Source of the DNA: Arthrobacter silviterrae
GTDB lineage: Bacteria; Actinomycetota; Actinomycetes; Actinomycetales; Micrococcaceae
Assembly (NCBI RefSeq): GCF_011045165.1
Contig: NZ_JAAKZI010000037.1
Location: 1 to 34,878, forward strand
Length of the DNA stretch: 34,878 bases
Direction: 5' to 3'
Under the pieces are notes generated by a model, which ran no database searches, was not told the DNA's origin, and worked only from the letters and a program-made list of their open reading frames with translations. Shown here one piece after another: positions 8,672 through 24,730 of this stretch. The stretch's first letter is position 1, and each line of letters starts with the position of its first letter. The position numbers were made by a program, and so were the translations under genes.

Positions 8672-8742
8672 GGTTTCGACAAGCTCAACCACCGGGGCCT
8701 TGGTCTCGACAGGCTCAGCCAGCGGCCCGGCTCAGCCAGCGG
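8672..8742. repeat. REP-like tandem element, two copies and a partial third
   Basis: Copy 1 (8672-8695) begins GGTTTCGACAAGCTCAACCA; copy 2 (8702-8725) begins GGTCTCGACAGGCTCAGCCA; they are 30 bp apart. A partial third (8729-8742) is GGCTCAGCCAGCGG. Motifs of the type TCGACAAGCTCAACCA are familiar intergenic repeats in Arthrobacter-like and related actinobacterial genomes; this is recollection, not a search result. The partial copy runs into the 3' end of the aldehyde dehydrogenase gene and contains its stop codon. Confidence 0.7.
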
Positions 8743-11814: not shown

Positions 11815-12067
11815 CGGGGCCCGCCCCTGTCTCCAATGCCATGCCGTCCCTCGCAGGGGTGAGGCAGGCGCGCTGGTTGGGGACGCCGTCGGCCGTTATC
11901 AGGCAGTCGAAGCACACGCCGATGCCGCAAAACAGGCCCCGCGGCCGCCCTTCCTTGCGGGTGGTGCGCCACGCGGTGATGCCGGCCTCGGTGAGCGCGG
12001 CGCCCACGGTTTGGCCGGGGCGGGCGGACAGCGGCGCGCCGTCCAGGGTCAGGTGCAGCTCAGGCAT
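11807..12067 (-). CDS. D-hydroxyproline dehydrogenase gamma subunit-like [2Fe-2S] protein
   Basis: Small ferredoxin-like subunit of 86 residues of the HcnA/OoxC type. Four cysteines, C47, C52, C55 and C68 (C-x4-C-x2-C-x12-C), match the plant-type [2Fe-2S] site in GLFCGIGVCFDCLITADG...NQRAC. The N-terminus MPELHLTLDGAPLSARPGQTV is the usual beta-grasp start. The frame is open further upstream, but this ATG gives the family length and overlaps the beta-subunit stop by 8 nt. It overlaps the alpha-subunit start by 8 nt. It is expected to pass electrons between the two flavoprotein subunits; that is family knowledge. Confidence 0.87.
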   Translation of the reverse strand: MPELHLTLDGAPLSARPGQTVGAALTEAGITAWRTTRKEGRPRGLFCGIGVCFDCLITADGVPNQRACLTPARDGMALETGAGPDV

Positions 12068-13229
12068 GTGCGCCCTCCAAGTCGGTGTCAAAGCGTTCCG
12101 GCGCAAACGGCGCCAGGTCCAGGGCGGGGGCTGCGCCCGTGAGCGACGCCGCCACCAGCGCGCCGGTGCCCACCGAAAGGCCGATCCCGGCGCCTTCGTG
12201 CCCGCAGGCATGCCACAGCCCGGGAGCGCGCGGATCCGGGCCGATGACGGGCAGGTGGTCGGGGCAGTAGGGGCGGAAGCCAAAGTAGCTGCGGAGCACC
12301 TTGGCCTCCTGCAGGAACGGGAAAAGCGCCATGGCCTTGCCGGCCATTTCCGCCAGCACGTGCGGGTTGAAGGACTTGTCAAAGCCCACCCGTTCGCGGC
12401 TGGAACCGATCAGGATGGTGCCCGAAGCCGTCCCCTCCACCACGGGCGAGGTCTGCAGCCCGGCATCGGAGCTGGCCACATTGTCCACGTATTCGGCCGC
12501 GTACACCTTGTGGCGGACCATCACGGGAAGCGGTTCGGTGACCATCACGTAGCCCTTGCGAGGGAGCACAGGAACACGGACGCCGGCCAGCGACGCCACG
12601 GCGCCGCCCCAGGTCCCGGCGGCGTTGACCACGGAGTTGGCGCTGACGTTCCCGCGCGCGGTGGCCACGCCCGTGACGGCGTCGCCGCGGCGCAGAAAGC
12701 CGGTGACTTCAGTGCCCGGATGGACGGTGGCGCCCAGGCCGCGGGCCAGCCGGAGCAGGTGCGCGGCGGCCAGCATCGGCTGCACCTGCGCGTCCTGCGG
12801 GTAGAAGGCGCCGCCGGCCATGCCGGGTGCCAGGTGCGGTTCGTGGCTGTGCAGCTCCGCCCCCGCCACCAGTTCGACGTCGATCCCCGCCTCCCGCTGC
12901 CGTCGCGCCAGGCGTGCCAGGTTGGCCTGCGTGGTTTCCCGCGCCGACACCACCAGCCCGCCCTTGGATTCAAATTCCCACAGCGGCCCGTGTTCGGCCA
13001 GCTCGCCGCGCCACAAGGACTGCGAGTAGAGGGACAGTTCCAGTTCGGGGCCGGCCTCCTTGTCGGAGACCAGGATGTTTCCCTCGCAGGCGCTGGAGGT
13101 GCCGCCGGCAACGGGGCCGCTGTCCAGCACGGCCACCTTCAGTCCCGCGAGTGCGGCAAAATAAGCACAGGCGGCGCCCACGGCGCCGGCACCGATGACC
13201 ACAACGTCAGCCGAGAGGGGCAACTTCAT
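12060..13229 (-). CDS. D-hydroxyproline dehydrogenase beta subunit-like FAD amine oxidase (DadA-type)
   Basis: FAD-dependent D-amino-acid dehydrogenase of the DAO/DadA fold, 389 residues. The FAD Rossmann motif VVVIGAGAVGAACAYFAALAG begins at about residue 9 and ends in an acidic ribose-binding position (VAVLDSG). The C-terminus carries GHEGAGIGLSVGTGALVA, which also contacts FAD. It is predicted to oxidise cis-4-hydroxy-D-proline to the cyclic imine. The start is certain within a few residues because the Rossmann fold begins at once. No ribosome-binding site precedes the ATG, the operator-like palindrome lies 1 nt upstream, and CATACT sits 6 nt from the ATG, so the mRNA is probably leaderless. 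First gene of the beta-gamma-alpha-aldehyde dehydrogenase operon. Confidence 0.88.
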   Translation of the reverse strand: MKLPLSADVVVIGAGAVGAACAYFAALAGLKVAVLDSGPVAGGTSSACEGNILVSDKEAGPELELSLYSQSLWRGELAEHGPLWEFESKGGLVVSARETTQANLARLARRQREAGIDVELVAGAELHSHEPHLAPGMAGGAFYPQDAQVQPMLAAAHLLRLARGLGATVHPGTEVTGFLRRGDAVTGVATARGNVSANSVVNAAGTWGGAVASLAGVRVPVLPRKGYVMVTEPLPVMVRHKVYAAEYVDNVASSDAGLQTSPVVEGTASGTILIGSSRERVGFDKSFNPHVLAEMAGKAMALFPFLQEAKVLRSYFGFRPYCPDHLPVIGPDPRAPGLWHACGHEGAGIGLSVGTGALVAASLTGAAPALDLAPFAPERFDTDLEGAHA

Positions 13230-13230
13230 A

Positions 13231-13255
13231 ACAGTAGTATGTCACATGCTACTGT
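13231..13255. promoter_or_regulatory. Operator copy A, in front of the dehydrogenase operon
   Basis: ACAGTAGTATGT (13231-13242), a central C, then ACATGCTACTGT (13244-13255): twelve-base arms with one mismatch. The 21-bp core (13233-13253) fits the island consensus AGTA-N2-ATGT-S-ACAT-N2-TACT. On the bottom strand it contains CATACT (13236-13241), a -10-like hexamer 6 nt from the start codon. A bound GntR dimer would block the promoter. Confidence 0.75.
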
Positions 13256-13275
13256 CCGCGAACACCCCCGCGCCC

Positions 13276-13338
13276 GTTGAGGTTCGAGATAACCACCTCC
13301 CCGGGGCTCCTTCGGAGGTGGTTATCTCGAATCTCAAC
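13276..13338. repeat. Long inverted repeat between gntR and the dehydrogenase operon
   Basis: Arms of 25 nt (13276-13300 and 13314-13338) pair with a single G/A difference around a 13-nt loop. The arms contain TTCGAGATAACCACCTCC and its complement. The flanks 13261-13269 and 13341-13349 can extend the pairing after a small internal loop. No T-run follows on either strand, so it is a poor classical terminator. It may act as a gntR 3' hairpin or be an intergenic palindromic repeat. Confidence 0.8.
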
Positions 13339-13347
13339 GAGGGGGGG

Positions 13348-14016
13348 TTAGTGCCTGGCCCATTCGCCGCGGACGTGGCCAATGTGGCGGGTCATGAGGT
13401 CCTGCGCCTCCCGTGCCTTGCCGGCAGCCATGAGGTCAACAAGTTCCACGTGTTCCAGGGACATGTCCCGCAGCTTGCCAGTGGCGGCCAGCGGGGCCAG
13501 GCCCAGCAGCCGGGTGTGGGCGCGGAGCTCGGAAATCAACGCCACCAGGCGGCGGTTGCCGCTGTATTCCAGCACGGCAATGTGGAAGGCGCGGTCCGCT
13601 TCCGTGTAGGCAATGAGGTCGCCCTCGCCGGCGAATGTGACAATGTCCTCGGCCATCTTGCGCAGCCGGGCCAGCCCGGCGGCGTCAATGAGCGGGGTGA
13701 CGGCGCTGACGGTGGGCGGCTCGATCAGCAGCCGCAGGGCGGTGATCTCATCCAGGTCGCCGTCGGACACCTCGGTGACCCGGAAGCCCTTGTTCGGCAG
13801 GGAGACCACCAGGCCTTCCTTGGCCAGGTCGAGCATGGCCTCGCGCACCGGCGTGGGGGACACGCCAAATCGTTTGCCCAGGGTGGGGGCGGAATAGACC
13901 TCCCCGGGCTTCATCTCCCCCGAGATCACAGCCGCACGGAGGGCCTTTGTCACCGTTTCCCGCAGGCTGACGTTCTTCTTGACAACCGTCAGGTGCGAGC
14001 GTTCCATGGAGCCCAC
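13348..14016 (-). CDS. GntR-family regulator, FadR subfamily (FCD domain)
   Basis: Transcription factor of 222 residues. The winged helix-turn-helix covers about residues 16-82, with APTLGKRFGVSPTPVREAMLDLAKEGLV as the recognition core. The FCD ligand domain follows, with likely metal-binding residues D141 and H145 (DRAFH), H189 and H211. Regulators of this class often sense organic or amino acids and repress until the ligand binds. It sits inside the hydroxyproline island, with the palindromic motif in front of it and in front of three other units, so it is the obvious candidate regulator. GTG 14016 follows AGGAGG by 4 nt; ATG 14007 is an alternative start. Confidence 0.9.
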   Translation of the reverse strand: MGSMERSHLTVVKKNVSLRETVTKALRAAVISGEMKPGEVYSAPTLGKRFGVSPTPVREAMLDLAKEGLVVSLPNKGFRVTEVSDGDLDEITALRLLIEPPTVSAVTPLIDAAGLARLRKMAEDIVTFAGEGDLIAYTEADRAFHIAVLEYSGNRRLVALISELRAHTRLLGLAPLAATGKLRDMSLEHVELVDLMAAGKAREAQDLMTRHIGHVRGEWARH

Positions 14017-14063
14017 GGCCCCTCCTATTCCCAGCTAAAGCAGTGAAAGCGGAACGAAAATCC

Positions 14064-14086
14064 CACTACAATATGACATTTTAGTG
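14064..14086. promoter_or_regulatory. Operator copy B, upstream of gntR
   Basis: CACTA (14064-14068) and TAGTG (14082-14086) flank ATATGACAT (14071-14079). The 21-bp core is 14065-14085. It covers the stop codon of the ketimine reductase gene (14081-14083) and lies 48 bp upstream of gntR, suggesting autoregulation. The bottom strand carries TATTGT (14068-14073) as a -10-like hexamer. Confidence 0.65.
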
Positions 14087-15034
14087 CATGGCTGCGGCCG
14101 GCGGGATAAAAAGTTCATAGGCCCGTCCGGCCACCACAATGTCCTCCCACGACATCCCCACCCCCGTGTACAGCAGCGGCTTCCCGGACGTCGGCGCAAA
14201 CTGCCCGTTCACCAGCTCCGACAGCGTCGCCAGTCCGCCGGCGGCCCACTCCTCCGGGGACCGGGCGGGGATCAGGTCCCCGGCCTCGCGCAGCGCGGAA
14301 GCCCGGCCCTCCACCACCACGGCGGCCCGCCGCGCCAACGAAGGGTCAACTTCCCGGGCGTCCAGCCCGTGCGAGCCGATCGCTGCCACCACGGCGCCGT
14401 CCCGGACCAGCGCACCGTCAAAAATGGGGGTCGCGGAAGACGTTGCACAGACCACCACATCCGCCCCTGCCACGTCCGCGGCGGAACCGCTGCGGGCGGG
14501 CACCCCGCGGCCGGCCCACTTTTCCGCCAGCGCGGCGGCGGCTTCGGCCCGGCGGCCCACCACCACGAGGGAATCAATGCCGCACACCGCGTGCAGCGCC
14601 TCAATGTGCCGGTCCGCCTGCAGGGACGTCCCAAACACCACCACCGCACCGGCCCGGGCGGCGCCCCGCAACCCCAGGAGGTGCTTGAGCGCCAGGGTGG
14701 TCACGGCCGGGGTGCGGATCAGCGTCAGCTCGGCGCCGTCAAGGGCGGCCAGCGGAGTGAGGAACTCCCCGTCCAGCAGCAGGTACGTGCCCTGGATTTT
14801 CGGGTGCCCCTTGGCGGGGTTGCCCGGCGCCACGGTGGCCACTTTCACCCCGGCATACTTCGCGGACTGGGCGGGCATCAGCAGGAACTCCCCGGCCGAA
14901 AGCGGGGCAAACAGCCGCGGCGAGTCCAGCTCGGGGTCCTGTCCGCCGCGCAGGGCGTCCTCAAGGGCGGCCACGGCGGCGGCCGGGGACATCAGCGCGG
15001 CCAGCTCGGTGGCGTCGATGTACGGCAGGGTCAT
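14081..15034 (-). CDS. Ornithine cyclodeaminase/mu-crystallin family, probable delta1-pyrroline-2-carboxylate reductase
   Basis: NAD(P)H-dependent ketimine reductase that would turn delta1-pyrroline-2-carboxylate into L-proline. The 317-residue protein has K64 in AGVKVATV and R107 in LTLIRTPA, both in the substrate site of the family, and a Rossmann domain near 130-160. The dinucleotide loop reads VVFGTSLQADRH (135-143) where most members have GxGxQAxxH, so the third glycine is replaced by Ser. The ATG overlaps the aconitase X small-subunit stop by 4 nt. With aconitase X upstream, the pair forms the cis-3-hydroxyproline branch. True ornithine cyclodeaminase activity is a less likely alternative. 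Confidence 0.86.
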   Translation of the reverse strand: MTLPYIDATELAALMSPAAAVAALEDALRGGQDPELDSPRLFAPLSAGEFLLMPAQSAKYAGVKVATVAPGNPAKGHPKIQGTYLLLDGEFLTPLAALDGAELTLIRTPAVTTLALKHLLGLRGAARAGAVVVFGTSLQADRHIEALHAVCGIDSLVVVGRRAEAAAALAEKWAGRGVPARSGSAADVAGADVVVCATSSATPIFDGALVRDGAVVAAIGSHGLDAREVDPSLARRAAVVVEGRASALREAGDLIPARSPEEWAAGGLATLSELVNGQFAPTSGKPLLYTGVGMSWEDIVVAGRAYELFIPPAAAMH

Positions 15035-15522
15035 GAAGGGTCCTTTGTTTGGCGGGGGATGCTGGGAGGCTGAAGAACGACGGCGGCAGTCCCGTCCGCG
15101 CGAGCCGTCACCGACACGATGGGCATGGGCCCGGCAACGGTGCGCAGCGTGGCCGCGGCGCCGGCGTCGAGCATGGCAAGGGGCATGGCGGTGCCGTACA
15201 GCTCGGCGGCGGCCAGGGCGCCGAGTGCCACGATGGCGTCGCGGGCAGTCAGCAGGATGGCGGCCGGGCCCACGCCCGCGCGCAGCTGTTCGGCCAGGAC
15301 GGAGGAGGATGAGCTTGACCCGCGCGAGGCGTCCATGAGCAGCACCCGGCCGGCGATCGAGGTGCCGTGCTGGGGGTGGTGGGCGTCAATGATCATGCCT
15401 GTCCTGCGGTCGGTGCCGCCCCAGAAGGACAGCGGCTCATCCAGCAGCAACAGCTGCCCGCTGCCAACGCCCGGGCACAGGGCTGCCGCGGCCAGCTCAC
15501 ATTCAGTTCCACTGGCTGTCAT
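15031..15522 (-). CDS. Aconitase X small subunit (DUF126 swivel domain)
   Basis: Small subunit, 163 residues, of two-part aconitase X, which has been shown in other bacteria to be a cis-3-hydroxy-L-proline dehydratase. The swivelling-domain signature is clear: LDEPLSFWGGTDRRTGMIID, then the Ser-rich loop SRGSSSSSSVLAEQLRAG and the GPAAILLTARDAIVALGA segment. The ATG at 15522 is chosen because it gives the family start (MTASGTECELAAAALCPGVGSG); the frame stays open to 15576 within the large-subunit gene. It overlaps the large-subunit 3' end by 20 nt and the reductase gene by 4 nt. Confidence 0.87.
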   Translation of the reverse strand: MTASGTECELAAAALCPGVGSGQLLLLDEPLSFWGGTDRRTGMIIDAHHPQHGTSIAGRVLLMDASRGSSSSSSVLAEQLRAGVGPAAILLTARDAIVALGALAAAELYGTAMPLAMLDAGAAATLRTVAGPMPIVSVTARADGTAAVVLQPPSIPRQTKDPS

Positions 15523-16777
15523 CGCGCACCACCCGTCCGGCCCTGGCGGACGCGAGGCACTCGGCCAGCGTGCCAAACACCACGTCCACGCCGATGTTCA
15601 TGGGGGCGTACCAGGCCCACTTGCCCGACGGCGTCATGACGGTCCGCTCCTCCGGCGCCAGGATGGGCGTGATGTAGGTGCAGGTGTCCGCCACAATCCG
15701 CGCACCGCGTTCCTCGGCAGCCTGGACCAGCCCGGCCTCGCGCGCCTGTGCCAGCACCTCGCGGGAGGTGTTGATCCACACGGTGCATCCCGGGTGGAAG
15801 GGACGGGTGCCGGCGAGGGCAGCGGCCAGCTTTTCAAACTCGCGCACCGAAAAGTGCGGCGTGCCCAGGGCCACGGCATCCAGCGGCGCCGACGGGTCCG
15901 CGACGGTGGAAAGTTCATCCCGGGCGGCCCGCAGCATGGCGGAGGTGACGGGGGTGGACGGCAGCGCGGCCCACCCGGGTCCCGGCGTGAGGGCCTCGGG
16001 AGTCACGCCCGCCACATGGAACAGCGCCACGCCTCCGGAGGACGCCGCCGTGGCGCCCAGCGCCTTGAGCCTGTCCTCATCCACCGAGGCGGGGTCGATG
16101 CCCGTCAGCAGCGGCACGCCGGAACCGGACAGGCGGCCCACCACATCGCCCAGGGCGGCCCAGACGGCCTCTTCGCCCAGCATGGCCGTGGACAGCGCGG
16201 AACAGTCAAGTTCCAGCGTGGGCAGCCGGTGTTCATCGAGGTGCAGGCCGGCGTGGGGCACGCGGCCCGTGATGGCGGCGCAAATGTCAATGAAGTCGCC
16301 GTAGCGTTCGGTGCGGGCGCCCAGCACGGAGTTGGCGAAGACGATGGCGTTGGATTCTGCCCAGGCAACGTTCTCACCAAACGCGGGCCGTTCCGCGGAC
16401 TGGTAGGGCGCGCAGGTCCAGGTGGGGCGGGCGCCGAGGGCACGGTAGGCGTCCATGAGTGCGCGGGCCGGCACGGCATCTTCGGGCGGCAGCCGCACCA
16501 GGCCCGGGTGCATGAGGTCCAGCGAACTGGAGTTGAGCGTGGTGGGGACGGCCACCCGGGCACCGAGGGAAGCAAGCTTTTCGGCAAAGTCCAGCCCGGC
16601 CTGCCCGTGGTAGAGGCAGCTGTCGATGTGGGCGCCGGTGACGGGCATGAGCCGTTCGGCCCCAAGCACGCCGGCCAGCGCCACCACCATGCGCATGGCC
16701 ATGGCCACCCCGGGCCCGCTGTCGCCGCGGAGCATGGCGGCCTCCTCGGCGGTGAGCACGGGCCCGGGGGTGGTCAC
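15503..16777 (-). CDS. Aconitase X large subunit (DUF521), probable cis-3-hydroxy-L-proline dehydratase
   Basis: Catalytic large subunit, 424 residues, of aconitase X. The N-terminal part reads LTAEEAAMLRGDSGPGVAMAMRMVVALA, a typical DUF521 opening, with GAHIDSCLYHGQAGLDFAEKLA next. Candidate cluster or active-site cysteines include the Cys in WTCAPYQ and in VADTCTYITPI. The C-terminal SGKWAWYAPMN is family-typical. The enzyme dehydrates cis-3-hydroxy-L-proline to delta1-pyrroline-2-carboxylate. The start is GTG at 16777, overlapping the stop of the racemase-family gene (GTGA), which fits the family length; the open frame upstream is antisense-type filler. Confidence 0.88.
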   Translation of the reverse strand: MTTPGPVLTAEEAAMLRGDSGPGVAMAMRMVVALAGVLGAERLMPVTGAHIDSCLYHGQAGLDFAEKLASLGARVAVPTTLNSSSLDLMHPGLVRLPPEDAVPARALMDAYRALGARPTWTCAPYQSAERPAFGENVAWAESNAIVFANSVLGARTERYGDFIDICAAITGRVPHAGLHLDEHRLPTLELDCSALSTAMLGEEAVWAALGDVVGRLSGSGVPLLTGIDPASVDEDRLKALGATAASSGGVALFHVAGVTPEALTPGPGWAALPSTPVTSAMLRAARDELSTVADPSAPLDAVALGTPHFSVREFEKLAAALAGTRPFHPGCTVWINTSREVLAQAREAGLVQAAEERGARIVADTCTYITPILAPEERTVMTPSGKWAWYAPMNIGVDVVFGTLAECLASARAGRVVRDDSQWN

Positions 16778-17775
16778 AGCAAAAACCCGGCCGGGAAGGG
16801 GTCCTCGGGGTCCAGGTGGTACTGGGCCGTGCCGGTGATCCAGGCCCGGCCCGTGATGGTGGGGACCACGGCGGGCAGCCCGCCCACAGTGGTTTCCTCG
16901 ACCAGTCGTCCGGTGAACTGGGTGCCGATGAAGGATTCGTTCACGAAGTCCGTGTTCAGCTCCAATTCGCCGCGGGCGTGCAGCTGGGCCATGCGGGCGC
17001 TGGTGCCGGTGCCGCACGGCGAGCGGTCAAACCAGCCCGGGTAGATGGCCATGGCGTGGCGTGAATGCTCGGCGGTGGAGCCGGGCGCCTTGAGATACAC
17101 GTGGTGGCAGCCGGTGATGTCGGGCCGTTCCGGGTGGACCGGCGGGTTGTGGGCGTTGATGGCGTCCATGATCTTCAGCCCAGCGTCCAGGAGCTCGTTT
17201 TTCGCCGCCCGGTCAAAGGGCAGGCCAAGCTCCTCCAGCTCGACGACGGCGTAAAAGTTTCCCCCAAACGCCATGTCGTAGTGCACCTCGCCCAGGCCCT
17301 CCACCGCCACGGACTGGTCCAGCGCCAGCGAGAAGGAGGGCACATTGCGGATCGTGACGGACTTTGCGGCACCGTCCTCCACGGCCACCTCGGCGATGAC
17401 CAGCCCGGCCGGGGTGTCCAGCCGGATCGTGGTCACGGGCTCCACCACGGGCACCATGCCGGTTTCCACCAGCACGGTGGCCACCCCGATGGTGCCGTGC
17501 CCGCACATGGGCAGCAGCCCGGAGACCTCGATGAACAGCACCCCGTAGTCGGCGTCGGGCCGGGTGGGCGGCTGCAGGATGGCCCCGCTCATGGACGCAT
17601 GGCCGCGGGGTTCGTACATCAGCAGGGTGCGGACGTCGTCGCTGTTGTCCATGAACCACTGGCGCCTCTCGGCCATGGTGGCACCGGGGATGGTGCCCAC
17701 ACCGCCGGTGATGACCCGGGTGGGCATCCCCTCGGTGTGGGACTCCACGGCGTGAAAGACCCGCTTGGAGCGCAT
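16774..17775 (-). CDS. Proline racemase superfamily, probable 4-hydroxyproline 2-epimerase
   Basis: Cofactor-independent epimerase that would interconvert trans-4-hydroxy-L-proline and cis-4-hydroxy-D-proline, the first step of the pathway. The 333-residue protein has both catalytic cysteines: C91 in LLPMCGHGTIG and C254 in FDRSPCGTGTSA, with D250. The Cys/Cys pair is the epimerase pattern; dehydratase members have Ser or Thr at one site. It lies 11 bp after the deaminase gene and overlaps aconitase X by 4 nt. An AAGGGA ribosome-binding site precedes the ATG. Proline racemase activity cannot be excluded, but context favours hydroxyproline. Confidence 0.9.
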   Translation of the reverse strand: MRSKRVFHAVESHTEGMPTRVITGGVGTIPGATMAERRQWFMDNSDDVRTLLMYEPRGHASMSGAILQPPTRPDADYGVLFIEVSGLLPMCGHGTIGVATVLVETGMVPVVEPVTTIRLDTPAGLVIAEVAVEDGAAKSVTIRNVPSFSLALDQSVAVEGLGEVHYDMAFGGNFYAVVELEELGLPFDRAAKNELLDAGLKIMDAINAHNPPVHPERPDITGCHHVYLKAPGSTAEHSRHAMAIYPGWFDRSPCGTGTSARMAQLHARGELELNTDFVNESFIGTQFTGRLVEETTVGGLPAVVPTITGRAWITGTAQYHLDPEDPFPAGFLL

Positions 17776-17786
17776 CGGCGTATCCC

Positions 17787-18692
17787 TTACTTGTAGCCCT
17801 TGGCCAGCACGGCCTCGGTGTCGGCCGTGATGCGCGCGGCCAGCTCGGCGGGCAGCGGACCGCGCGGCTGGCGGCAGGCCCCGCCCTTGCGCCCGGCGAT
17901 GTCCATGGACAGCTTGATGGACTGGACAAACTCCGTCTTGGAGTCCCAGCGCAGCAGCGGGTGCAGGTCGCGGTAGATGGGCAGTGCCGTGGCAATGTCG
18001 TCGGTGCTGCCGCTGGTGACCAGGTTGTACAGGTTCACGGTGCTTTGCGGGATGGCGTTGGGGTAGCCGGCAATCCAGCCGACGGCGCCGGCCAGGCCAA
18101 GTTCCAGCAGTACGTCGTCGGAGCCCACCAGCAGGTCCAGCTCGGGGGCCAGTTCGGCGATCTCGTAGGCGCGGCGCACGTCGCCGGTGAATTCCTTCAC
18201 GGCCACGATCAGGCCCTCCGCGTGGAGGCGGGCCAGCAGAGCCGGCGTCAGGTCCACCTTGGTGTCGTAGGGGTTGTTGTAGGCCACGACCGGCAGGCCG
18301 GCCTTGGCCACCTCGCGGTAGTGCGCCACCACGGTGTCGTCGTCGGCCTTGAAGGTGTTCGGCGGCAGGGCCAGCACGGAGGCGGCCCCGGCGTCGCGGG
18401 CCTGCTCCGCCCAGCGGCGGGATTCGTCCGCGCCGTACGCGGCAACGCCCGGCATGACGGTGAAGCCCTCGGGCGAGGCGGCCACGGCGGTTTCCACCAC
18501 CTTGGCCCGCTCTTCCGGCGTCAGGGTCTGGTATTCGCCCAGGGAGCCGTTGGGGCAGACGCCGTCGCAGCCGTTGGCGGCCAGCCAGGCAACATGCTCG
18601 CCAAAGGAGGCGTGGTCAACGCTGCCGTCGTCGTTGAAGGGAAGTGCCGTGGCGACGTGGATGCCCTGCCAGGGCTGGGTGCGGGTGGTCAT
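17787..18692 (-). CDS. Dihydrodipicolinate synthase family, probable delta1-pyrroline-4-hydroxy-2-carboxylate deaminase
   Basis: Class I aldolase-fold lyase of 301 residues expected to deaminate the cyclic imine made by D-hydroxyproline dehydrogenase to alpha-ketoglutarate semialdehyde and ammonia. The Schiff-base lysine is K166 in VAVKEFTGD and the partner tyrosine Y138 lies in VVAYNNP. The loop that is GTTGE in true DapA reads NGSLGEY (48-54), the form seen in side-branch members such as HypD. A strong AAAGGAG ribosome-binding site lies 6 nt before the ATG. It heads the unit deaminase, epimerase, aconitase X, reductase, with operator copy C upstream. Confidence 0.87.
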   Translation of the reverse strand: MTTRTQPWQGIHVATALPFNDDGSVDHASFGEHVAWLAANGCDGVCPNGSLGEYQTLTPEERAKVVETAVAASPEGFTVMPGVAAYGADESRRWAEQARDAGAASVLALPPNTFKADDDTVVAHYREVAKAGLPVVAYNNPYDTKVDLTPALLARLHAEGLIVAVKEFTGDVRRAYEIAELAPELDLLVGSDDVLLELGLAGAVGWIAGYPNAIPQSTVNLYNLVTSGSTDDIATALPIYRDLHPLLRWDSKTEFVQSIKLSMDIAGRKGGACRQPRGPLPAELAARITADTEAVLAKGYK

Positions 18693-18752
18693 GCTGGTCT
18701 CCTTTGTCCAAAAACTGTTTCATGCGGGTCAACTTGTTGCCCCCACACTATC

Positions 18753-18773
18753 AGTACAATGTCACATGATACT
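18753..18773. promoter_or_regulatory. Operator copy C, upstream of the deaminase unit
   Basis: AGTA-CA-ATGT-C-ACAT-GA-TACT, a good match to the island palindrome, in the 94-bp gap upstream of the deaminase gene. The bottom strand presents CATTGT (18756-18761) as a weak -10-like hexamer. Confidence 0.75.
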
Positions 18774-18786
18774 AGGGGTGCGGGTC

Positions 18787-19812
18787 CTACCGCAGCACAA
18801 ACCCCAGCCCGAGCTCGTCGTCGGCCTCCAGCGTGAACTTGCACTCCCCCACGGGAAACGCCCGGCCGGTGACCTCAACCACCACGCCGGCGTCGGAGTG
18901 GCCCGCCACCTCGGAGGTGAAGTGCGAGTCGATGATGGAGAAGTGGTCCAGCACGTCCCCGTACGCCAGCTCACCCGAATCGGTCAGCGCCGCCACCCGG
19001 GCCGCGGTCCCCGAGCCGCACGGGGAGCGGTCCACCTGCCCGTCGGCAAAAATGGTCACGTTGCGCTGCGCCAGCGCCCCGTGCATGGCCAGGCCGCTGT
19101 CCGGCCCCACCGCCTCGTGGAAGATGGTGCCGTAAATCCCGTCCAGGCGGGTGTCGGTGGGGTGGTGGGCGGCGGGATGGTCCGCGAGCGCGGCCTTGAC
19201 CTGCCGGCCGGCTGAGATGAGCCTGAACAGGTTCGACGGCGTGACGTCCAGTCCCGCTGCCCGTGCCGGCAGCGAGGCGTACAGCGCCCCGCCCCAGAGC
19301 ACATCCACCCGGAGCCGGCCAAAGTCCGCGGTCTTGACCTCAATGTCCCGGGCCACCACGTAGGAGGGGACGTTGCGGAAGGTGACACTCTCCACGACAC
19401 CGTCCACCATCGACACCCTGGCCGTGACACGCCCGGACGGGACGTCGATGACCACGTCCGTGTCGCCGTCGTCCGGGGCCCGGACCAGGCCGCTGCGCAC
19501 GGCCCAGGCGCCCAGGGCGATGGTGCCGTGGCCGCACGCGGTGGAAAAGCCGTCCTTGTGCCAGAACAGCACGCCAAAATGGGCGCCGTCGTCATTGGGC
19601 GGGACGATGAAGCCGCCGTACATGTCCGCATGACCGCGGGGTTCATTGACCAGCAGGCGCCGCAGCTTGTCGGCATCGCCGGCCATGGCATTTTCGCGCC
19701 GTTCAAGCACCGTGGCACCCGGAATCAAGAACGGCAGGGCAGGCACAATCCGGAACGGCTCGCCCGCCGTGTGGTAGTCCACCGTTTCAATTTCCCAGGA
19801 TTCAACCTTCAT
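18787..19812 (-). CDS. Proline racemase superfamily protein, second copy
   Basis: Second family member of 341 residues, clearly diverged from the one at 16774. Catalytic cysteines C93 (STACGHGTIALG) and C265 (VDRSPCGSGTAAR) are both present, with D261. The Cys/Cys pattern predicts epimerase or racemase chemistry, not the Ser/Cys or Cys/Thr pattern linked to trans-3-hydroxyproline dehydratases. It may act on a different hydroxyproline isomer, on proline, or be a redundant epimerase. It lies 36 bp after livF and has an AAAGGGAG ribosome-binding site, so it is probably the last gene of the transporter operon, tying uptake to first-step conversion. Confidence 0.88.
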   Translation of the reverse strand: MKVESWEIETVDYHTAGEPFRIVPALPFLIPGATVLERRENAMAGDADKLRRLLVNEPRGHADMYGGFIVPPNDDGAHFGVLFWHKDGFSTACGHGTIALGAWAVRSGLVRAPDDGDTDVVIDVPSGRVTARVSMVDGVVESVTFRNVPSYVVARDIEVKTADFGRLRVDVLWGGALYASLPARAAGLDVTPSNLFRLISAGRQVKAALADHPAAHHPTDTRLDGIYGTIFHEAVGPDSGLAMHGALAQRNVTIFADGQVDRSPCGSGTAARVAALTDSGELAYGDVLDHFSIIDSHFTSEVAGHSDAGVVVEVTGRAFPVGECKFTLEADDELGLGFVLR

Positions 19813-19848
19813 TGCTCCCTTTCACTCCCTGCCAACATTTCCCGCCTG

Positions 19849-20559
19849 CTACGCACCAAGGTAGGCCTCAACAATGCGCGAATCCGCCATCAGCTCCGCC
19901 CCCGTGCCGGTCATGGTGGTGACCCCGTTTTCAATGACATAGCCGCGGCTGGTGATCTTCAGGGCGGCCCGCGCATTTTGTTCCACCAGCAGCACCGTGG
20001 TGCCGTTGGCATTCACTTCACGGATCACGTCCATGACCTGGGCCACGATCAACGGCGCCAGCCCCATGGACGGTTCGTCCAGCATCAGCATCCGCGGACC
20101 AGCAATAAGCGCCCGGCCAATGGCCAGCATCTGCTGCTCGCCGCCGGACAGCGTGCCGCCCTGCTGCGAGCGCCGCTCCGCCAGCAGCGGCAGCAGCTCA
20201 AAGACGTCCTTGAGCCGCTTTTGCACGGTCGCCGAGTCCTTCACCAGGTAGCCGCCCAGCTGCAGGTTTTCCAGCACGGACAGGGTGGAAAAAATCCGCC
20301 GCCCCTCCGGCACGTGGATCAACCCGGCGGCCACCACCTCCCACGGCTTGGCGCGCGTAATGTCCTTGCCGTCAAAGCTGATCTTTCCCGCGTGCGCCTT
20401 CACAATGGCCGACGCCGCCGACAGCGTGGTGGTCTTCCCCGCGCCGTTGTTTCCCAGCAGGGCAACGATCTCGCCCTCCTCGACCCGGACGTCGATGCCG
20501 CGCAGCGCCTGGATCTTGCCGTAAAACACTTCCACGTTCTCAAACTCGAGCATCGCCAT
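19849..20559 (-). CDS. livF: Branched-chain-amino-acid-type ABC transporter ATPase LivF
   Basis: Cytoplasmic ATPase subunit of 236 residues, the LivF size. Walker A is GNNGAGKTT (36-44), the signature LSGGEQQ begins at 137, and Walker B MLMLDEPSMGLAP spans about 157-169. It would power import of an amino acid across the membrane with LivG, LivH and LivM. The operon context makes hydroxyproline the likely substrate rather than leucine-type acids; this is inference. Its ATG overlaps the livG stop by one base (TGATG). Confidence 0.93.
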   Translation of the reverse strand: MAMLEFENVEVFYGKIQALRGIDVRVEEGEIVALLGNNGAGKTTTLSAASAIVKAHAGKISFDGKDITRAKPWEVVAAGLIHVPEGRRIFSTLSVLENLQLGGYLVKDSATVQKRLKDVFELLPLLAERRSQQGGTLSGGEQQMLAIGRALIAGPRMLMLDEPSMGLAPLIVAQVMDVIREVNANGTTVLLVEQNARAALKITSRGYVIENGVTTMTGTGAELMADSRIVEAYLGA

Positions 20560-21386
20560 CAGGAATCGCCCTCCGTTATATCCGGCCCTTCGGCCTTGGC
20601 CGGCTCATCGGCCTTGACTGGCTCATCGGCTTTGCCGAGGTAAGCCTCAATGACAGCCGGGTTCTTCTTCACCGCATCCGGCGTGCCATCGGCAATCTCC
20701 TTGCCGAAGTTCATCACCACCACGCGTTCGCTGACCTCCATCACCACGCCCATGTCATGTTCAATGAGCACCACAGCGGCGCCAAGGTCGCGGATCTTGC
20801 GGCACAGTTCCAGCAAATCCTGTTTTTCCGAGTGGTTGAGCCCCGCCCCAGGTTCGTCCAGGAGCACCAGCTTGGCCTTGCGGGCCATGGCGCGCGCCAT
20901 TTCCACCTGGCGCTGCTGGCCGTAGGCCAGGTTGCGCACGGGGATGCCGCGCCCGCCCTGGTAGCCCACGAAGTCCAGCCAGCGGTGGGCCTCCTCCGTG
21001 TAAAAGCGTTCGCTCTTGCGGTACCGGGGCGTGTGGAACAGGGCGTCCACAAAATTCTGGCCGCCGTACAGGTGCATGCCGCCACGGACATTGTCCAGCA
21101 CAGTCAGGTCCGGGAACAGCCGCAGGTTCTGGAAGGTGCGGGTCACCCCGGTGGCCGCTATGACGGCGGGCCGCTTGCCGGTGATGTCCTTCCCATCCAG
21201 CGTGATGGATCCGCTGACCGGCTTGTAAAACCCGGTGATGCAGTTGAAGGCGCTGGTTTTCCCGGCACCGTTGGGGCCGATCACCGAGACGATCTCCCCG
21301 GCGTCGGCGGAGAAGGTGAGGCCGTTGACAGCCTTGACTCCGCCAAAGGCGATCTGCAGTTCATTGACTTCAAGCAGCGGGCTCAC
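20559..21386 (-). CDS. livG: Branched-chain-amino-acid-type ABC transporter ATPase LivG
   Basis: Second ATPase subunit, 275 residues. Walker A is GPNGAGKTS (37-45). The signature is the LivG-type LAYGQQRQVEMARAMA instead of LSGGQ, and Walker B reads LVLLDEPGAGLNHSE. The C-terminus IADGTPDAVKKNPAVIEAYLGK is canonical. It is followed by about 25 extra residues, KADEPVKADEPAKAEGPDI and on, encoded by an 18-bp tandem repeat, which most LivG proteins lack. It overlaps livM by 4 nt and livF by 1 nt. Confidence 0.93.
   Translation of the reverse strand: MSPLLEVNELQIAFGGVKAVNGLTFSADAGEIVSVIGPNGAGKTSAFNCITGFYKPVSGSITLDGKDITGKRPAVIAATGVTRTFQNLRLFPDLTVLDNVRGGMHLYGGQNFVDALFHTPRYRKSERFYTEEAHRWLDFVGYQGGRGIPVRNLAYGQQRQVEMARAMARKAKLVLLDEPGAGLNHSEKQDLLELCRKIRDLGAAVVLIEHDMGVVMEVSERVVVMNFGKEIADGTPDAVKKNPAVIEAYLGKADEPVKADEPAKAEGPDITEGDS
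20593..20628. repeat. 18-bp tandem repeat in the livG 3' end
   Basis: GCCTTGGCCGGCTCATCG (20593-20610) is followed directly by GCCTTGACTGGCTCATCG (20611-20628), and a partial third unit begins at 20629. It encodes the KADEP(V/A) repeats of the LivG tail. Confidence 0.8.
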
Positions 21387-22456
21387 GGGGTCCCTCCCTT
21401 CGCGGTGGTGACGGGCGCACCCGGGCGGGGGCCGCCGTCGCGCTTCCCCTTGCGGGCCTCATCAAGTTTCTCCGGTTCATAGGCGCGGCTGGGCCAGAAG
21501 CCCTGGGGCCGGAGCACCATGACTGCCACCAGCACGACGCCGAAGATCACGTAGCGCAGGTTGCCCATGTCGCGCAGGAATTCCGGCAGCAGCGAGATGA
21601 CCACCGCTCCCACCACCACGCCGCGGGTGTTCCCCATGCCGCCCAGCACCACGGCCATCAGTACCAGGGCGGACTGCAGGAACACGAAGCTTTGCGGGGA
21701 GATGGCCGAAAGGTGCGCGGCGAAAAGCACGCCGCCGATCCCGCCCCAGATGGCGCCAAAGATGTACGCGGCCAGCTTGACCTTGTAGGTGTGGATGCCC
21801 ATGGCCTCGGCGGCGTCCTCATCCTCGCGGACAAAGCGCCACGCCCGGCCCAGCCGGGACTTGCCCAGCCGCGCCGAACCGAGCACCATCAGTGCCACCA
21901 CGGCCACGCAGAAGTAGTAGAACGGCACGGGCCCGGAGAGGTCCAGGCCGAAAAGGTCCACGCCGGGGATGCCGTAGATGCCGGAGGGGCCGCCCGTGAT
22001 GGCGAGGTTGTTGGCCGTGAGGCGGATGATTTCGCCGAAACCCAGGGTGACGATGGCCAGGTAGTCGCTACGCAGCCGGAGCGTGGGGCCGCCGATGATC
22101 AGCCCGGCCAGGATGCACATGATGACCACGGCAGGGATGGTGAAGAGGATGGGCAGTTCCCAGGCCTTGGCAATGATGCCGGAGGTGTAGGCCCCCACAG
22201 CCATGAACGCGATGTAGCCCAGGTCCAGCAGGCCGCAGTAGCCCACCACAATGTTCAGCCCGGACGCGAGCAGGATGAAGATGACGGCCGTGGTGCCGAT
22301 GCTCATCGCGTAGTTGCTGGCCAGCACAAACGGGAACAGCACGGCGATGGCAAAGGCGGCCCAGCCCAGCTGCCTGCTTTCAAACAGGCGGGAAATGCGG
22401 CTGGCGGGCTTGCCGATCCGGCGGGGCGCGCGGGTGGTGTCGACGTTGTCGCTCAT
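21383..22456 (-). CDS. livM: Branched-chain-amino-acid-type ABC transporter permease LivM
   Basis: Inner-membrane permease of 357 residues with about nine or ten transmembrane helices. LivM marks include LNIVVGYCGLLDLGYIAFMAVGAY near the first third and the coupling stretch RLGRAWRFVREDEDAAEAMGI that contacts the ATPases. The last 40 residues are charged and cytoplasmic. Its ATG directly abuts the livH stop codon, and its stop overlaps livG by 4 nt. It is expected to form the channel with LivH. Confidence 0.92.
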   Translation of the reverse strand: MSDNVDTTRAPRRIGKPASRISRLFESRQLGWAAFAIAVLFPFVLASNYAMSIGTTAVIFILLASGLNIVVGYCGLLDLGYIAFMAVGAYTSGIIAKAWELPILFTIPAVVIMCILAGLIIGGPTLRLRSDYLAIVTLGFGEIIRLTANNLAITGGPSGIYGIPGVDLFGLDLSGPVPFYYFCVAVVALMVLGSARLGKSRLGRAWRFVREDEDAAEAMGIHTYKVKLAAYIFGAIWGGIGGVLFAAHLSAISPQSFVFLQSALVLMAVVLGGMGNTRGVVVGAVVISLLPEFLRDMGNLRYVIFGVVLVAVMVLRPQGFWPSRAYEPEKLDEARKGKRDGGPRPGAPVTTAKGGTP

Positions 22457-23350
22457 TTAGACACGCTCCGTTACGCGTTCGCCCAGCAGGCCGGTGGGTT
22501 TCAGGGTCAGGAAGGCGATCAGGACCCCGAACGTGAACACGTCCCGCCATTCCCCGCCCAGCCACTGGGACCCGAAGGCTTCCAGCAGGCCCAGCAGCAG
22601 GCCGCCCAGCATGGCGCCCTTGATGTTTCCGATGCCGCCGATCACGGCCGCAGTAAACGCCTTCAGGCCGATGATGAAGCCCATGAGGAAGTCGATCTTG
22701 CCGTAGTAGGCCCCGGCCATGACGCCGGCGGCGCCGGCCAGGGCCGAGCCGATGAAGAACGTCCACGTGATGACCTTGTTGACGTTGATGCCCATCAAAA
22801 GCGAACCCTTGGTGTCCAGGGCAATGGCACGCATGGCCCGGCCCATCGAGGTGCGCTGGATGTAGGCATTCAGGCCCAGCATGAGCAGCACCGCGATCAC
22901 CATGAGGACGATCTGCGGAACGGAGATGCGGGCGCCAAGGACGGTGAAGCTATCGCCCTCGAGCCTGACCGGGAATACCTTGGGGTTGGGGCCGGCCACG
23001 GCGCTGACGCCGTATTCCAGCGTGAAGGACGCGCCGACGGCGGTGATCAGCACCGCGAGCCGCGGCGAGTTCCGCAGCGGCCGATACGCCAGATACTCAA
23101 TGCCGACGCCGATGCCGCCGGTGACCACCATGCACAGCAGCAGCACTATCAGCAGCGCCGTGATGGACATGGAGGCCGGAATGACGCCCACTGAGGTCAG
23201 CATGGCAAAGCCCACGAAGGCGCCCAGCATGTAAATGTCGCCATGGGCGAAGTTCAAAAGTTTGATGATGCCGTAGACCATGGAATAGCCCAGGGCGATA
23301 AGTGCGTAAAAAGAGCCTACGAAGAGGCCGTTCCAAACGAGCTGTGTCAT
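22457..23350 (-). CDS. livH: Branched-chain-amino-acid-type ABC transporter permease LivH
   Basis: Inner-membrane permease of 297 residues with about eight transmembrane helices. The N-terminus LVWNGLFVGSFYALIALGYSMVYGIIKLLNFAHGDIYMLGAF is the canonical LivH opening. The coupling loop IQRTSMGRAMRAIALDTKGSLLMGINVNKVI is also family-typical. An 88-bp gap with a stable hairpin separates it from the binding-protein gene upstream; livM follows with no gap. Confidence 0.92.
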   Translation of the reverse strand: MTQLVWNGLFVGSFYALIALGYSMVYGIIKLLNFAHGDIYMLGAFVGFAMLTSVGVIPASMSITALLIVLLLCMVVTGGIGVGIEYLAYRPLRNSPRLAVLITAVGASFTLEYGVSAVAGPNPKVFPVRLEGDSFTVLGARISVPQIVLMVIAVLLMLGLNAYIQRTSMGRAMRAIALDTKGSLLMGINVNKVITWTFFIGSALAGAAGVMAGAYYGKIDFLMGFIIGLKAFTAAVIGGIGNIKGAMLGGLLLGLLEAFGSQWLGGEWRDVFTFGVLIAFLTLKPTGLLGERVTERV

Positions 23351-23398
23351 GCGTGACCTGCCTCAAGCTGTGTCAGCGGTGTTCAGGGTGGAATGGTG

Positions 23399-23432
23399 CG
23401 GTTGGCGGGCCCCGGACGGGACCCGCCAACCG
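23399..23432. promoter_or_regulatory. Hairpin between livK and livH
   Basis: CGGTTGGCGGG (23399-23409) and CCCGCCAACCG (23422-23432) form a perfect 11-bp stem; the 12-nt loop can itself pair. No T-run follows. This position, just after a binding-protein gene, is where ABC operons often carry a 3'-stabilising hairpin that raises binding-protein output over permeases. Confidence 0.65.
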
Positions 23433-23438
23433 GCTGCG

Positions 23439-24611
23439 CTAGCTCAGCGCATCCTTCAGGACGAATTTTCCGCCCTGGACCACCAGGATCTGGAAGCCTC
23501 CGCTGCTCAGCGTGTGCTCCGGGGTGAACTTCAGCGGCCCGGAGAAGATCTGGAAGCCGTTGATCCCCTCCAGTGCCTTGATGACATCGGCGCCCTTGGT
23601 TCCCTTGGCCTGCGTGATGGCCTCGGCCGCCACGCGGACGGCGTCATAGGACTGCGTGGAGTACGGGCCGGGGGCCGAGCTGAACTTCTTGTTGTAGTTG
23701 GCGATCCACGTCTCGGCGCCCTTGATGGTGTCCGGGGTCTGGGTCATGGTGGCGAAGACGCCCTCGGCATTGGCGGAACCGGCAATCTTGACCAGTGACG
23801 GGTCAACGCTGCCGTCGGCCACCATGATCTTGCCCTTGAACCCGGCGGCCTTGAGCTGGTTGATGATCAGCCCGCCTTCCTGGTAGTAGCCCGTCCAGTA
23901 GAGCATGTCCGGGTTGGCGCCCATGATGTCGTGCACGGCGGAGGAGTAGTCGCTTTCACCTGCCGTGACGGAGGTGGAAAGGGCCACCTTGACGGAGCCG
24001 TCGGAAGCCAGGTCCTTCTTGGTTTCGGTGGCGATGTCCTTGGAATAGCTGGTGTTGTCATCCACCAGGGCAACGCTCTTCACCCCGTCCTTGACCATGA
24101 ACTTCACTGCCGCGGCCGCCTGCTGGGTGCCCGTGCCGTTGATCATGAAGACATTGGGCAATTTCTGGTTGACCAATTCCTGCGAGTTGGCCGCCGGAAT
24201 GATCATGGGGATGTTTGCCTTGTTGAAAATGGGCAGCGTGGGCAGCGTGGCCCCGGAGCAGTAGCCGCCCACGGAAATGAGGGCCCCGTTGGAGACGGCC
24301 TTGTTGGCCGCCGCGGCCGCCTGGGTGGGATCGCAGGCGCCGTCTTCCAGGTCGAGGGACAGTTGGCGGCCCAGCACCCCGCCCTTGGCGTTGATTTCAT
24401 CGACGGCCATTTGCATGCCGTTCTTCATGTAAACGCCGGTGGGGGCGCTCGAGCCGGACAGCGGGATCACCGCGGCGATCTTGATGGGTCCGGTGTCGGC
24501 CGAGGAACTGCTGCCACCGCCGCCGAGGATGCCCCCGCAGCCGGTGGTGGTGGCGAGCATTGCCGCCGCGACCGCACCGACCGCAAGTGCCTTGGGAATT
24601 CGAAGTTTCAT
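23439..24611 (-). CDS. livK: ABC transporter substrate-binding lipoprotein (LivK/Peripla_BP_6 type)
   Basis: Extracellular amino-acid-binding lipoprotein of 390 residues, anchored to the membrane in a Gram-positive. The signal peptide MKLRIPKALAVGAVAAAMLA leads to a lipobox ending TTTGC with the lipid-modified Cys at about residue 25, then a Ser/Gly linker. The mature domain begins IKIAAVIPLSGSSAPTG, typical of type I binding proteins of the leucine/amide class. The second in-frame ATG (24611) is chosen because AGGAG lies 9 nt upstream; the first ATG (24620) abuts it. It is the first gene of the transporter operon, under a near-consensus promoter with operator copy D. The ligand is inferred to be hydroxyproline. 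Confidence 0.92.
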   Translation of the reverse strand: MKLRIPKALAVGAVAAAMLATTTGCGGILGGGGSSSSADTGPIKIAAVIPLSGSSAPTGVYMKNGMQMAVDEINAKGGVLGRQLSLDLEDGACDPTQAAAAANKAVSNGALISVGGYCSGATLPTLPIFNKANIPMIIPAANSQELVNQKLPNVFMINGTGTQQAAAAVKFMVKDGVKSVALVDDNTSYSKDIATETKKDLASDGSVKVALSTSVTAGESDYSSAVHDIMGANPDMLYWTGYYQEGGLIINQLKAAGFKGKIMVADGSVDPSLVKIAGSANAEGVFATMTQTPDTIKGAETWIANYNKKFSSAPGPYSTQSYDAVRVAAEAITQAKGTKGADVIKALEGINGFQIFSGPLKFTPEHTLSSGGFQILVVQGGKFVLKDALS

Positions 24612-24702
24612 TGCCTGCATCTCCTTTGACGGGACAACATCCCAATTGAGAACCAACCACTCAAGACCCGGATGGCCGGGCCTGTCATGCACGTCACACT
24701 TC

Positions 24703-24730
24703 ACATGTCAGTAAAATATGACATGTCACG
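24703..24730. promoter_or_regulatory. Operator copy D with an overlapping perfect palindrome
   Basis: The 21-bp island motif spans 24710-24730 (AGTA-AA-ATAT-G-ACAT-GT-CACG, right outer arm degenerate). It overlaps a perfect palindrome, ACATGTCA (24703-24710), 8 nt, TGACATGT (24719-24726). The double symmetry could hold two overlapping sites. It lies in the 213-bp gap between livK and the divergent quinone-oxidoreductase-like gene. Confidence 0.65.

What the first reader, a model, noticed from the sequence alone, without database searches (positions are those of the whole stretch)
13231..24730. Four copies of one palindromic operator define a local GntR regulon
Cores at 13233-13253, 14065-14085, 18753-18773 and 24710-24730 align without gaps to A-S-T-A-N2-ATRT-S-ACAT-N2..., with positions A1, T3, A4, A7, T8, T10, A12-C13-A14-T15 and A19 the same in all four. 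One copy stands in front of each inferred transcription unit of the island, including gntR itself, and I did not see it elsewhere in the window. The TGT-N-ACA heart suits a FadR-type GntR dimer.
Basis: partly seen in the sequence, partly recalled or inferred. Interest (0 to 1): 0.75.

Follow-up and report, generated by a model that had tools for sequence, protein, structure and literature searches.

The report
HypR operators controlling a hydroxyproline regulon
Four copies of a 21-base palindrome are very probably landing sites for a repressor that holds a soil bacterium's hydroxyproline-eating genes off until needed; it is a clear new example of a regulator already studied in Streptomyces, with a sharper picture of its DNA site and a likely extra target elsewhere in the genome.

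Summary
In detail: four similar 21-bp dyads lie at the stated coordinates, one before each of four transcription units. Left-out tests, permuted matrices and related genomes put them far above chance.

The GntR gene (13348-14016) encodes a FadR-type (FCD) protein, 53% identical to a Streptomyces protein that carries all 14 published residues of S. coelicolor HypR, a characterised repressor of hydroxyproline genes. The published HypR footprint core TACAATGTCAC lies exactly within the site at 18753.

Three additions. (1) The HypR site, whose symmetry was published as unclear, is a 21-bp dyad. (2) The regulon is not only local: a fifth operator precedes a prolyl-aminopeptidase-like / Xaa-Pro-aminopeptidase-like pair on another contig; in seven of ten genus-mates examined the first of these genes lies in the island. 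(3) The dyad covers the -10 region; at the D-hydroxyproline dehydrogenase operon it ends 3 nt before the start codon, the geometry of a leaderless promoter.

Most likely mechanism: promoter occlusion by a HypR dimer, released by a pathway metabolite that remains unknown. Binding by this protein is untested.

The parts
13233..13253 (-). HypR operator O1; in gene direction AGTAGCATGTGACATACTACT; ends 3 nt before the ATG of the HypDH-beta gene, has CATACT at positions 13-18 (leaderless -10 geometry, inferred)
14065..14085 (-). HypR operator O2 in front of gntR (autoregulation, inferred); overlaps the stop codon of the upstream OCD-family gene
18753..18773 (-). HypR operator O3 in front of the HypD-epimerase-AcnX-OCD operon; contains the published S. 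coelicolor footprint core TACAATGTCAC exactly
24710..24730 (-). HypR operator O4 in front of the Liv-type transporter operon; TTGACA lies 8 bp upstream of the site in gene direction (7-8 bp in 8 of 8 genomes)
24692..24712 (.). weak second match (14.2 bits) overlapping O4; status uncertain
13348..14016 (-). gntR (HypR): 222 aa, GntR + FCD domains; 12 of 14 published HypR residues at a constant offset of 3
12060..13229 (-). D-hydroxyproline dehydrogenase beta subunit (DAO family)
11807..12067 (-). HypDH gamma subunit, 86 aa, Fer2_4 domain (as in SCO6290)
10198..11814 (-). HypDH alpha subunit (SoxA-like / Pyr_redox_2)
8732..10201 (-). aldehyde dehydrogenase, by position alpha-ketoglutarate semialdehyde dehydrogenase (divergent)
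14081..15034 (-). OCD/mu-crystallin family, Delta1-pyrroline-2-carboxylate reductase-like
15031..15525 (-). AcnX small (swivel) subunit; start approximate (open frame scanned was 15031-15576)
15503..16777 (-). [quoted passage not shown] start approximate (frame scanned was 15503-17017)
16774..17775 (-). proline racemase family, 4-hydroxyproline epimerase-like (Cys/Cys)
17787..18692 (-). DHDPS family, pyrroline-4-hydroxy-2-carboxylate deaminase (HypD)-like
18787..19812 (-). second proline racemase-family protein, 3-hydroxyproline dehydratase/epimerase-like (Cys/Cys), last gene of the transporter operon
19849..24611 (-). Liv-type ABC transporter (LivF, LivG, LivM, LivH, lipoprotein SBP; SBP start taken as ATG 24611 with GGAG upstream)

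Best explanation
The four dyads are operators of the GntR/FadR-type repressor encoded at 13348-14016, an orthologue (or very close co-functional relative) of Streptomyces HypR. A HypR dimer binds the 21-bp dyad, one subunit per half, and covers the -10 region of each promoter. It thereby shuts off four units: the Liv-type transporter operon, the 4-/3-hydroxyproline enzyme operon, its own gene, and the D-hydroxyproline dehydrogenase operon. A fifth dyad on another contig puts a prolyl-aminopeptidase-like and a Xaa-Pro-aminopeptidase-like gene under the same control. When hydroxyproline is taken up and metabolised, an intermediate (most likely downstream of D-hydroxyproline, bound at the FCD metal site) releases HypR and the whole set is induced. 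Shown here: sequences, positions, conservation, co-occurrence, residue identities. Taken from work on S. coelicolor: DNA binding, repression, induction by L-Hyp. Inferred: dimer on dyad, leaderless HypDH transcript, identity of the effector.
For: Site 18753 contains the S. coelicolor HypR footprint core TACAATGTCAC; that footprint was 21 bp and covered the -10 region. A matrix from the four window sites alone scores the 11-mers of all 7 EMSA-bound S. coelicolor fragments (4 distinct sequences; 13.06-17.59) above both unbound ones (12.89, 11.08); the margin is small. Window GntR shares 12 of 14 published HypR residues including the metal-site His/Glu/Asp, and 53% identity with L076, which has 14 of 14 and the gene order I infer for S. 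coelicolor from the paper. Sites are enriched 107 to 1.16 in 80 related loci. 61 of 65 loci with at least two hydroxyproline genes carry one above 14 bits, against 4.4% expected. Four-slot conservation, 39 of 39 examined slots. Motif and gntR co-occur 9/9 versus 0/7 in the genus; in 245 family genomes 22 of 43 with gntR have the motif, 6 of 202 without it do. Anchored only on the published 11-mer, the unscored bases of 52 distinct sites still show the second half of the dyad: 3.94 of 6 positions against 1.67 (maximum 2.50) in scrambled controls.
Against: No binding or expression data exist for this protein. One of the five DNA-contact residues named for S. coelicolor HypR differs (Arg71 is Pro74 here). 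21 of 43 family genomes with a GntR hit have no motif at up to 1 mismatch, so either the threshold takes in paralogues or the motif drifts; and in at least two of the 22 double-positive genomes (G023, G144) the motif lies on another contig or far from gntR and may be chance. 4 of 65 hydroxyproline loci (L028, L030, L079, L081) lack a site above 14 bits. NCBIfam names the GntR for none of its curated families: all six matches lie below cut-off, the best being a phosphonate regulator. S. coelicolor HypR did not respond to L-Hyp or D-Hyp in vitro, so the release step is unproven. Genus-mates are related, so conservation counts are not independent events.
Confidence: 0.9

Rival explanations
1. The dyads are bound by a different regulator (for example an activator such as the AraC-type LhpR of Pseudomonas, or a LysR- or CRP-type protein), and gntR is only a neighbour.
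For: No binding test for this GntR. In S. coelicolor one HypR-bound site lies more than 60 bp upstream of the transcription start, so not every site fits simple occlusion. An open frame with a LysR substrate-binding domain lies at 25839-26666.
Against: Motif and gntR co-occur exactly in the genus. A dyad precedes gntR itself in 10 of 10 islands. The site matches the S. coelicolor HypR footprint core and separates EMSA-bound from unbound sites.
Confidence: 0.05
2. The dyads act as RNA hairpins or terminators rather than protein-binding sites.
For: They are inverted repeats between genes.
Against: The arms are only about 10 bases and A+T-rich. At the HypDH operon they end 3 nt before the start codon, where a leaderless transcript would not contain them. 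The same core sequence is a protein footprint in Streptomyces. I ran no folding calculation.
Confidence: 0.02
3. The repeats are mobile or duplicated DNA (MITE-like) or chance similarity in A+T-rich spacers.
For: Four similar copies within 12 kb.
Against: Similarity stops at the site edges (flank identity 0.32-0.59). Strong sites occupy the same slots before transcription units in relatives. Left-out tests exclude chance within the window.
Confidence: 0.01

Closest known systems
HypR (SCO6294) of Streptomyces coelicolor, PMC6608401 (abstract, sections 21 and 22 and selected passages read)
   Same: FadR-subfamily GntR with FCD metal site; site core TACAATGTCAC; represses itself and the HypDH-HypD-epimerase genes; regulon reaches beyond the cluster
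   Different: Here the operator is a clear 21-bp dyad. The island also holds 3-hydroxyproline-type enzymes, a Liv-type transporter and an aldehyde dehydrogenase. The remote target found is a peptidase-like pair; no M9 collagenase was found in the genome, but the same search found none in its control genomes either, so absence is not shown, and kgd was not looked for.
HypR regulons of Proteobacteria, PMC5343134 (passages read), and S. meliloti HypR (known to me here only through that paper and PMC6608401)
   Same: GntR repressor of hydroxyproline genes; ABC transporter, OCD and collagenases as lineage-specific targets
   Different: Relationship of the proteins and motifs to the actinobacterial HypR was not tested here
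GntR/FCD proteins of known structure (3fms, 3sxy, 7xp0). That TM0439 corresponds to 3fms/3sxy is recalled
   Same: Sequence relatives over almost the whole length; metal-site histidines published for TM0439 and HypR correspond
   Different: Their DNA sites and ligands were not compared

Membership tests
Actinobacterial HypR (S. coelicolor type) | FadR-type GntR with FCD domain and three-His metal site | tested here: met
   GntR and FCD domains; H145, H189, H211, E99, D141, E188 match the published residues
Actinobacterial HypR (S. coelicolor type) | DNA-contact residues S50, T52, R55, R71, N72 | tested here: inconclusive
   4 of 5 conserved; R71 is Pro in the window protein
Actinobacterial HypR (S. 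coelicolor type) | Operator with core like TRCMATGTSAC before its own gene and the D-HypDH/HypD/epimerase genes | tested here: met
   site 18753 has the core exactly, the other three window sites differ from it at one or more bases but fit the 21-bp matrix; all examined target slots occupied
Actinobacterial HypR (S. coelicolor type) | Repression of targets, induction by L-Hyp, Zn2+-sensitive DNA binding | not testable with these tools
   needs protein and strains
FadR subfamily of GntR regulators | winged helix plus FCD domain, dyad with central GT-N-AC | tested here: met
   TGT-S-ACA or its G-to-A variant at the centre
LhpR (AraC-type activator of Pseudomonas) | AraC-type DNA-binding domain | tested here: not met
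   Pfam gives GntR and FCD only
S. meliloti / proteobacterial HypR | orthology of protein and binding motif | not tested
   no proteobacterial HypR sequence was compared

The most novel reading that the evidence does not exclude
HypR operators are built into the core promoter itself. The right arm of the dyad supplies the -10 hexamer, and at the D-hydroxyproline dehydrogenase operon the promoter is leaderless, so the repressor dimer sits 3 nt from the start codon, an arrangement kept from Micrococcaceae to Streptomyces. The operator also travels with function: a proline-peptidase-like gene that lies in the island in relatives sits elsewhere here, yet has its own operator.
Probability: 0.6. Interest if true: 0.45.

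Novelty: new member of a known kind. Interest (0 to 1): 0.35.

Why it matters
It ties a whole hydroxyproline-scavenging programme (probably peptide trimming, uptake, 4-Hyp and 3-Hyp degradation) in an Arthrobacter/Specibacter-like soil bacterium to one known repressor. It settles by comparison the symmetry of a site that was published as unclear, and it gives a 21-bp matrix with which HypR regulons can be mapped across Actinomycetota. The regulon's common denominator (several hydroxyproline isomers feeding pyrroline carboxylates and alpha-ketoglutarate semialdehyde) narrows the search for the missing effector.

Tried and rejected
Looking for S. coelicolor HypR itself in the protein database gave only other proteins among the 120 rows listed. 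Orthology was instead tested by the published residue numbers: the first Streptomyces proteins looked at (P0172 and similar), read by eye, do not have the published Arg71, whereas L076 fits 14 of 14. The M9 collagenase search is uninformative because no control genome matched either. Two pattern hits of 14-16 bits outside long open frames (C36:4879, C52:157013) lie near an aldo/keto reductase and an inositol-phosphate-synthase-like gene, or near frames without a Pfam match; I take them as chance. The script stopped with an error only when saving a file, after its results were printed; those are used. Literature searches bearing on novelty: (listings only, of which one search showed 20 of 95 papers and one search showed 8 of 53). 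In those listings I saw no HypR regulon described in Arthrobacter/Specibacter, no paper with a proline iminopeptidase in a hydroxyproline regulon (0 papers) and none on leaderless HypDH (1 unrelated paper). They cover open-licence papers only. Further papers seen only as passages: PMC5144071, PMC8184944, PMC5343134.

Full report
THE OBSERVATION. Read in the direction of the genes (all on the minus strand) they are AGTAGCATGTGACATACTACT (before HypDH-beta), ACTAAAATGTCATATTGTAGT (before gntR), AGTATCATGTGACATTGTACT (before HypD) and CGTGACATGTCATATTTTACT (before the transporter SBP). With each site left out in turn, the matrix from the other three ranks it above every non-site position in the window: 23.6-28.9 bits against at most 15.5. 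The window is the whole of contig C38 of a 4.29-Mb, 106-contig genome. The nearest named relatives of the GntR are from Specibacter and Arthrobacter.

THE ISLAND. Profile searches give a Liv-type ABC transporter; two proline-racemase-family proteins; a DHDPS-family protein (HypD-like); a split aconitase X; an OCD-family reductase; a GntR/FCD regulator; a DAO-family, a Fer2_4 and a SoxA-like protein, the three subunits of a D-hydroxyproline dehydrogenase as described for S. coelicolor; and an aldehyde dehydrogenase. This is a trans-4-hydroxyproline pathway plus a probable 3-hydroxyproline branch. Split AcnX enzymes of the Type-IIa class, including some from Actinobacteria, are characterised cis-3-hydroxy-L-proline dehydratases (PMC8184944, passages read). 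I did not place the window's AcnX in that tree.

THE REGULATOR IS A KNOWN KIND. PMC6608401 (abstract, sections 21 and 22 and passages read) describes HypR of S. coelicolor: a FadR-type repressor with a 21-bp footprint over the -10 region of its own promoter, core TACAATGTCAC, repressing the HypDH-HypD-epimerase genes, a collagenase gene and a 2-oxoglutarate dehydrogenase gene; its targets are induced by L-Hyp in vivo. [quoted passage not shown] The window site at 18753 contains that core exactly. The S. coelicolor protein did not appear by name. Locus L076 (Streptomyces sp. CB02414) has the gene order that I infer from the paper, and its GntR carries all 14 published residues at the published numbers. 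The window GntR carries 12 of 14 at a constant offset of 3 and is 53% identical to it. The two differences are Pro for Arg71, one of the proposed DNA contacts, and Ile for Leu209. A matrix made only from the window sites puts the 11-mers of the 7 EMSA-bound S. coelicolor fragments above the 2 unbound ones (lowest bound 13.06, highest unbound 12.89). Counting distinct sequences (4 bound, 2 unbound) that order has a chance of 1 in 15, and the margin is small.

CONSERVATION. In those 80 loci (1.53 Mb) the window matrix finds 107 matches above 16 bits, against a mean of 1.16 and a maximum of 9 for 100 matrices with permuted half-columns. Of 65 loci with at least two hydroxyproline gene types, 61 have a site above 14 bits (expected 4.4%); the misses are L028 and L030 (Microbacterium), L079 and L081. 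Of the other 15 loci, 10 have a site. Five of these ten are Kribbella loci (L008-L010, L012, L021) whose sites score 21.5-25.1 and which carry a homologue of the peptidase described below and ABC-transporter ATPase homologues.

GENUS AND FAMILY TEST. In 16 genomes of the genus, the dyad (up to 1 mismatch) occurs in 9 and the regulator (E <= 1e-40) in the same 9 (p = 8.7e-5). In 245 family genomes the counts are motif 28, regulator 43, both 22; 6 of 202 genomes without the regulator have the motif (p = 1.8e-14; overlap counted by hand). The reversed-pattern control rang in 1 of 245. 21 of 43 regulator-positive genomes lack the motif at this threshold, and in G023 and G144 the motif is not near the regulator. 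Phylogeny is not corrected for.

SLOT BY SLOT. I fetched island stretches of ten genus-mates, eight chosen because they have the regulator and two (G246, G250) because they have the close peptidase homologue. In these and the window every examinable slot has a site above 13 bits: SBP 8 of 8, HypD 11 of 11, gntR 10 of 10, HypDH-beta 10 of 10. Pairwise identity is 0.85-0.93 in the site, 0.91-1.00 in its core, and 0.32-0.59 in the 40-bp flanks; the highest flank value is coding sequence of HypDH-beta.

THE FIFTH OPERATOR. C63:111448-111468 (AGTAATATATGACATGTTACA, 29.2 bits) precedes an alpha/beta-hydrolase-fold protein (Pfam) whose best NCBIfam names are prolyl aminopeptidase / proline iminopeptidase, all below cut-off (37.9 bits against 259.75), and whose closest solved relative is Arabidopsis AT3g61540. 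The gene after it overlaps it by 4 bases and encodes an M24 + AMP_N protein, best NCBIfam name Xaa-Pro aminopeptidase, below cut-off. The peptidase names are thus probable, not certain. Close homologues of the first protein (74-81%) lie just upstream of the HypD operator in seven of the ten genus-mates (L171, L172, L173, L175, L176, L181, L182). They are not seen in the stretches of the other three. More distant homologues (46-57%) in the genus have no site: best score 9.1 or less in the 13 such loci fetched (L158-L170; four further matches were not fetched). From the contig lengths the gene lies at least about 40 kb from the island here, yet it has its own operator, so the regulon extends beyond the island.

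SYMMETRY. Anchoring only on the published asymmetric 11-mer (as TRCMATGTSAC) in the 80 loci gives 61 hits; scrambled patterns that hit at all average 2.4 distinct hits. In the 52 distinct 21-mers the unscored positions lean towards the dyad: G2 45/52, A14 34/52, T15 36/52, Y18 49/52, A19 32/52, C20 31/52, and more weakly A1 23/52 and T21 23/52. The mean is 3.94 of 6 right-arm positions against 1.67 (maximum 2.50) in controls. The HypR site is therefore a 21-bp dyad with one strong and one looser arm in many genomes.

PROMOTER GEOMETRY. Before HypDH-beta the dyad ends 3 nt from the start codon in 8 of 10 genus islands and 4 nt in 2. Of 56 HypDH-beta genes in the named loci, 35 have no site above 12 bits directly upstream. 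No Shine-Dalgarno fits in 3 nt, and positions 13-18 (CATACT/CATATT) then fall at -12 to -7 of the start codon, which is leaderless geometry (inference; no transcript data). Some of the other loci have a GGAGG-like stretch after the site and look leadered. Before SBP, TTGACA stands 7-8 bp upstream of the dyad in 8 of 8 genomes, 17-18 bp from CATATT (GATATT in one) inside the dyad. In both cases a bound dimer would cover the -10 region. This fits repression by occlusion, as published for the hypR promoter of S. coelicolor.

VERDICT. The finding is real and its interpretation is mostly right. It is a new member of a known kind, with useful refinements (dyad, fifth target, promoter geometry). The effector is the open question.

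Noticed in passing
window 24681-24709 (gene direction, downstream of O4): AGTGTGA is conserved just downstream of the transporter operator in all eight aligned genomes, followed by a looser GACA/AACA stretch; possibly a second regulatory element, overlapping the weak HypR match.
   Followed up: no
window 18787-19812: The second proline-racemase-family protein has Cys at both catalytic positions (ACGHG, DRSPCGSG). From recalled knowledge of the family this suggests a 2-epimerase or bifunctional enzyme rather than a Cys/Thr trans-3-hydroxyproline dehydratase.
   Followed up: partly
window 8732-10201: The presumed alpha-ketoglutarate semialdehyde dehydrogenase matches the Aldedh profile only over residues 7-281 (133.9 bits) and scores far below the cut-off of each of the 25 NCBIfam families listed: a divergent aldehyde dehydrogenase.
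   Followed up: no
L183 (G192:C1:460001-468000): A second locus in one genus-mate with a HypD-like gene (69%) and two strong HypR dyads (25.3 and 26.5 bits).
   Followed up: no
L008-L010, L012, L021 (Kribbella): HypR-like regulator with homologues of the C63 peptidase-like protein and of ABC-transporter ATPases and strong dyads, but no hydroxyproline catabolic gene hits within the fetched stretch.
   Followed up: partly
L028, L030 (Microbacterium): Hydroxyproline clusters with a 57%-identical GntR but no dyad above 6.4 bits: the site may have changed there.
   Followed up: no
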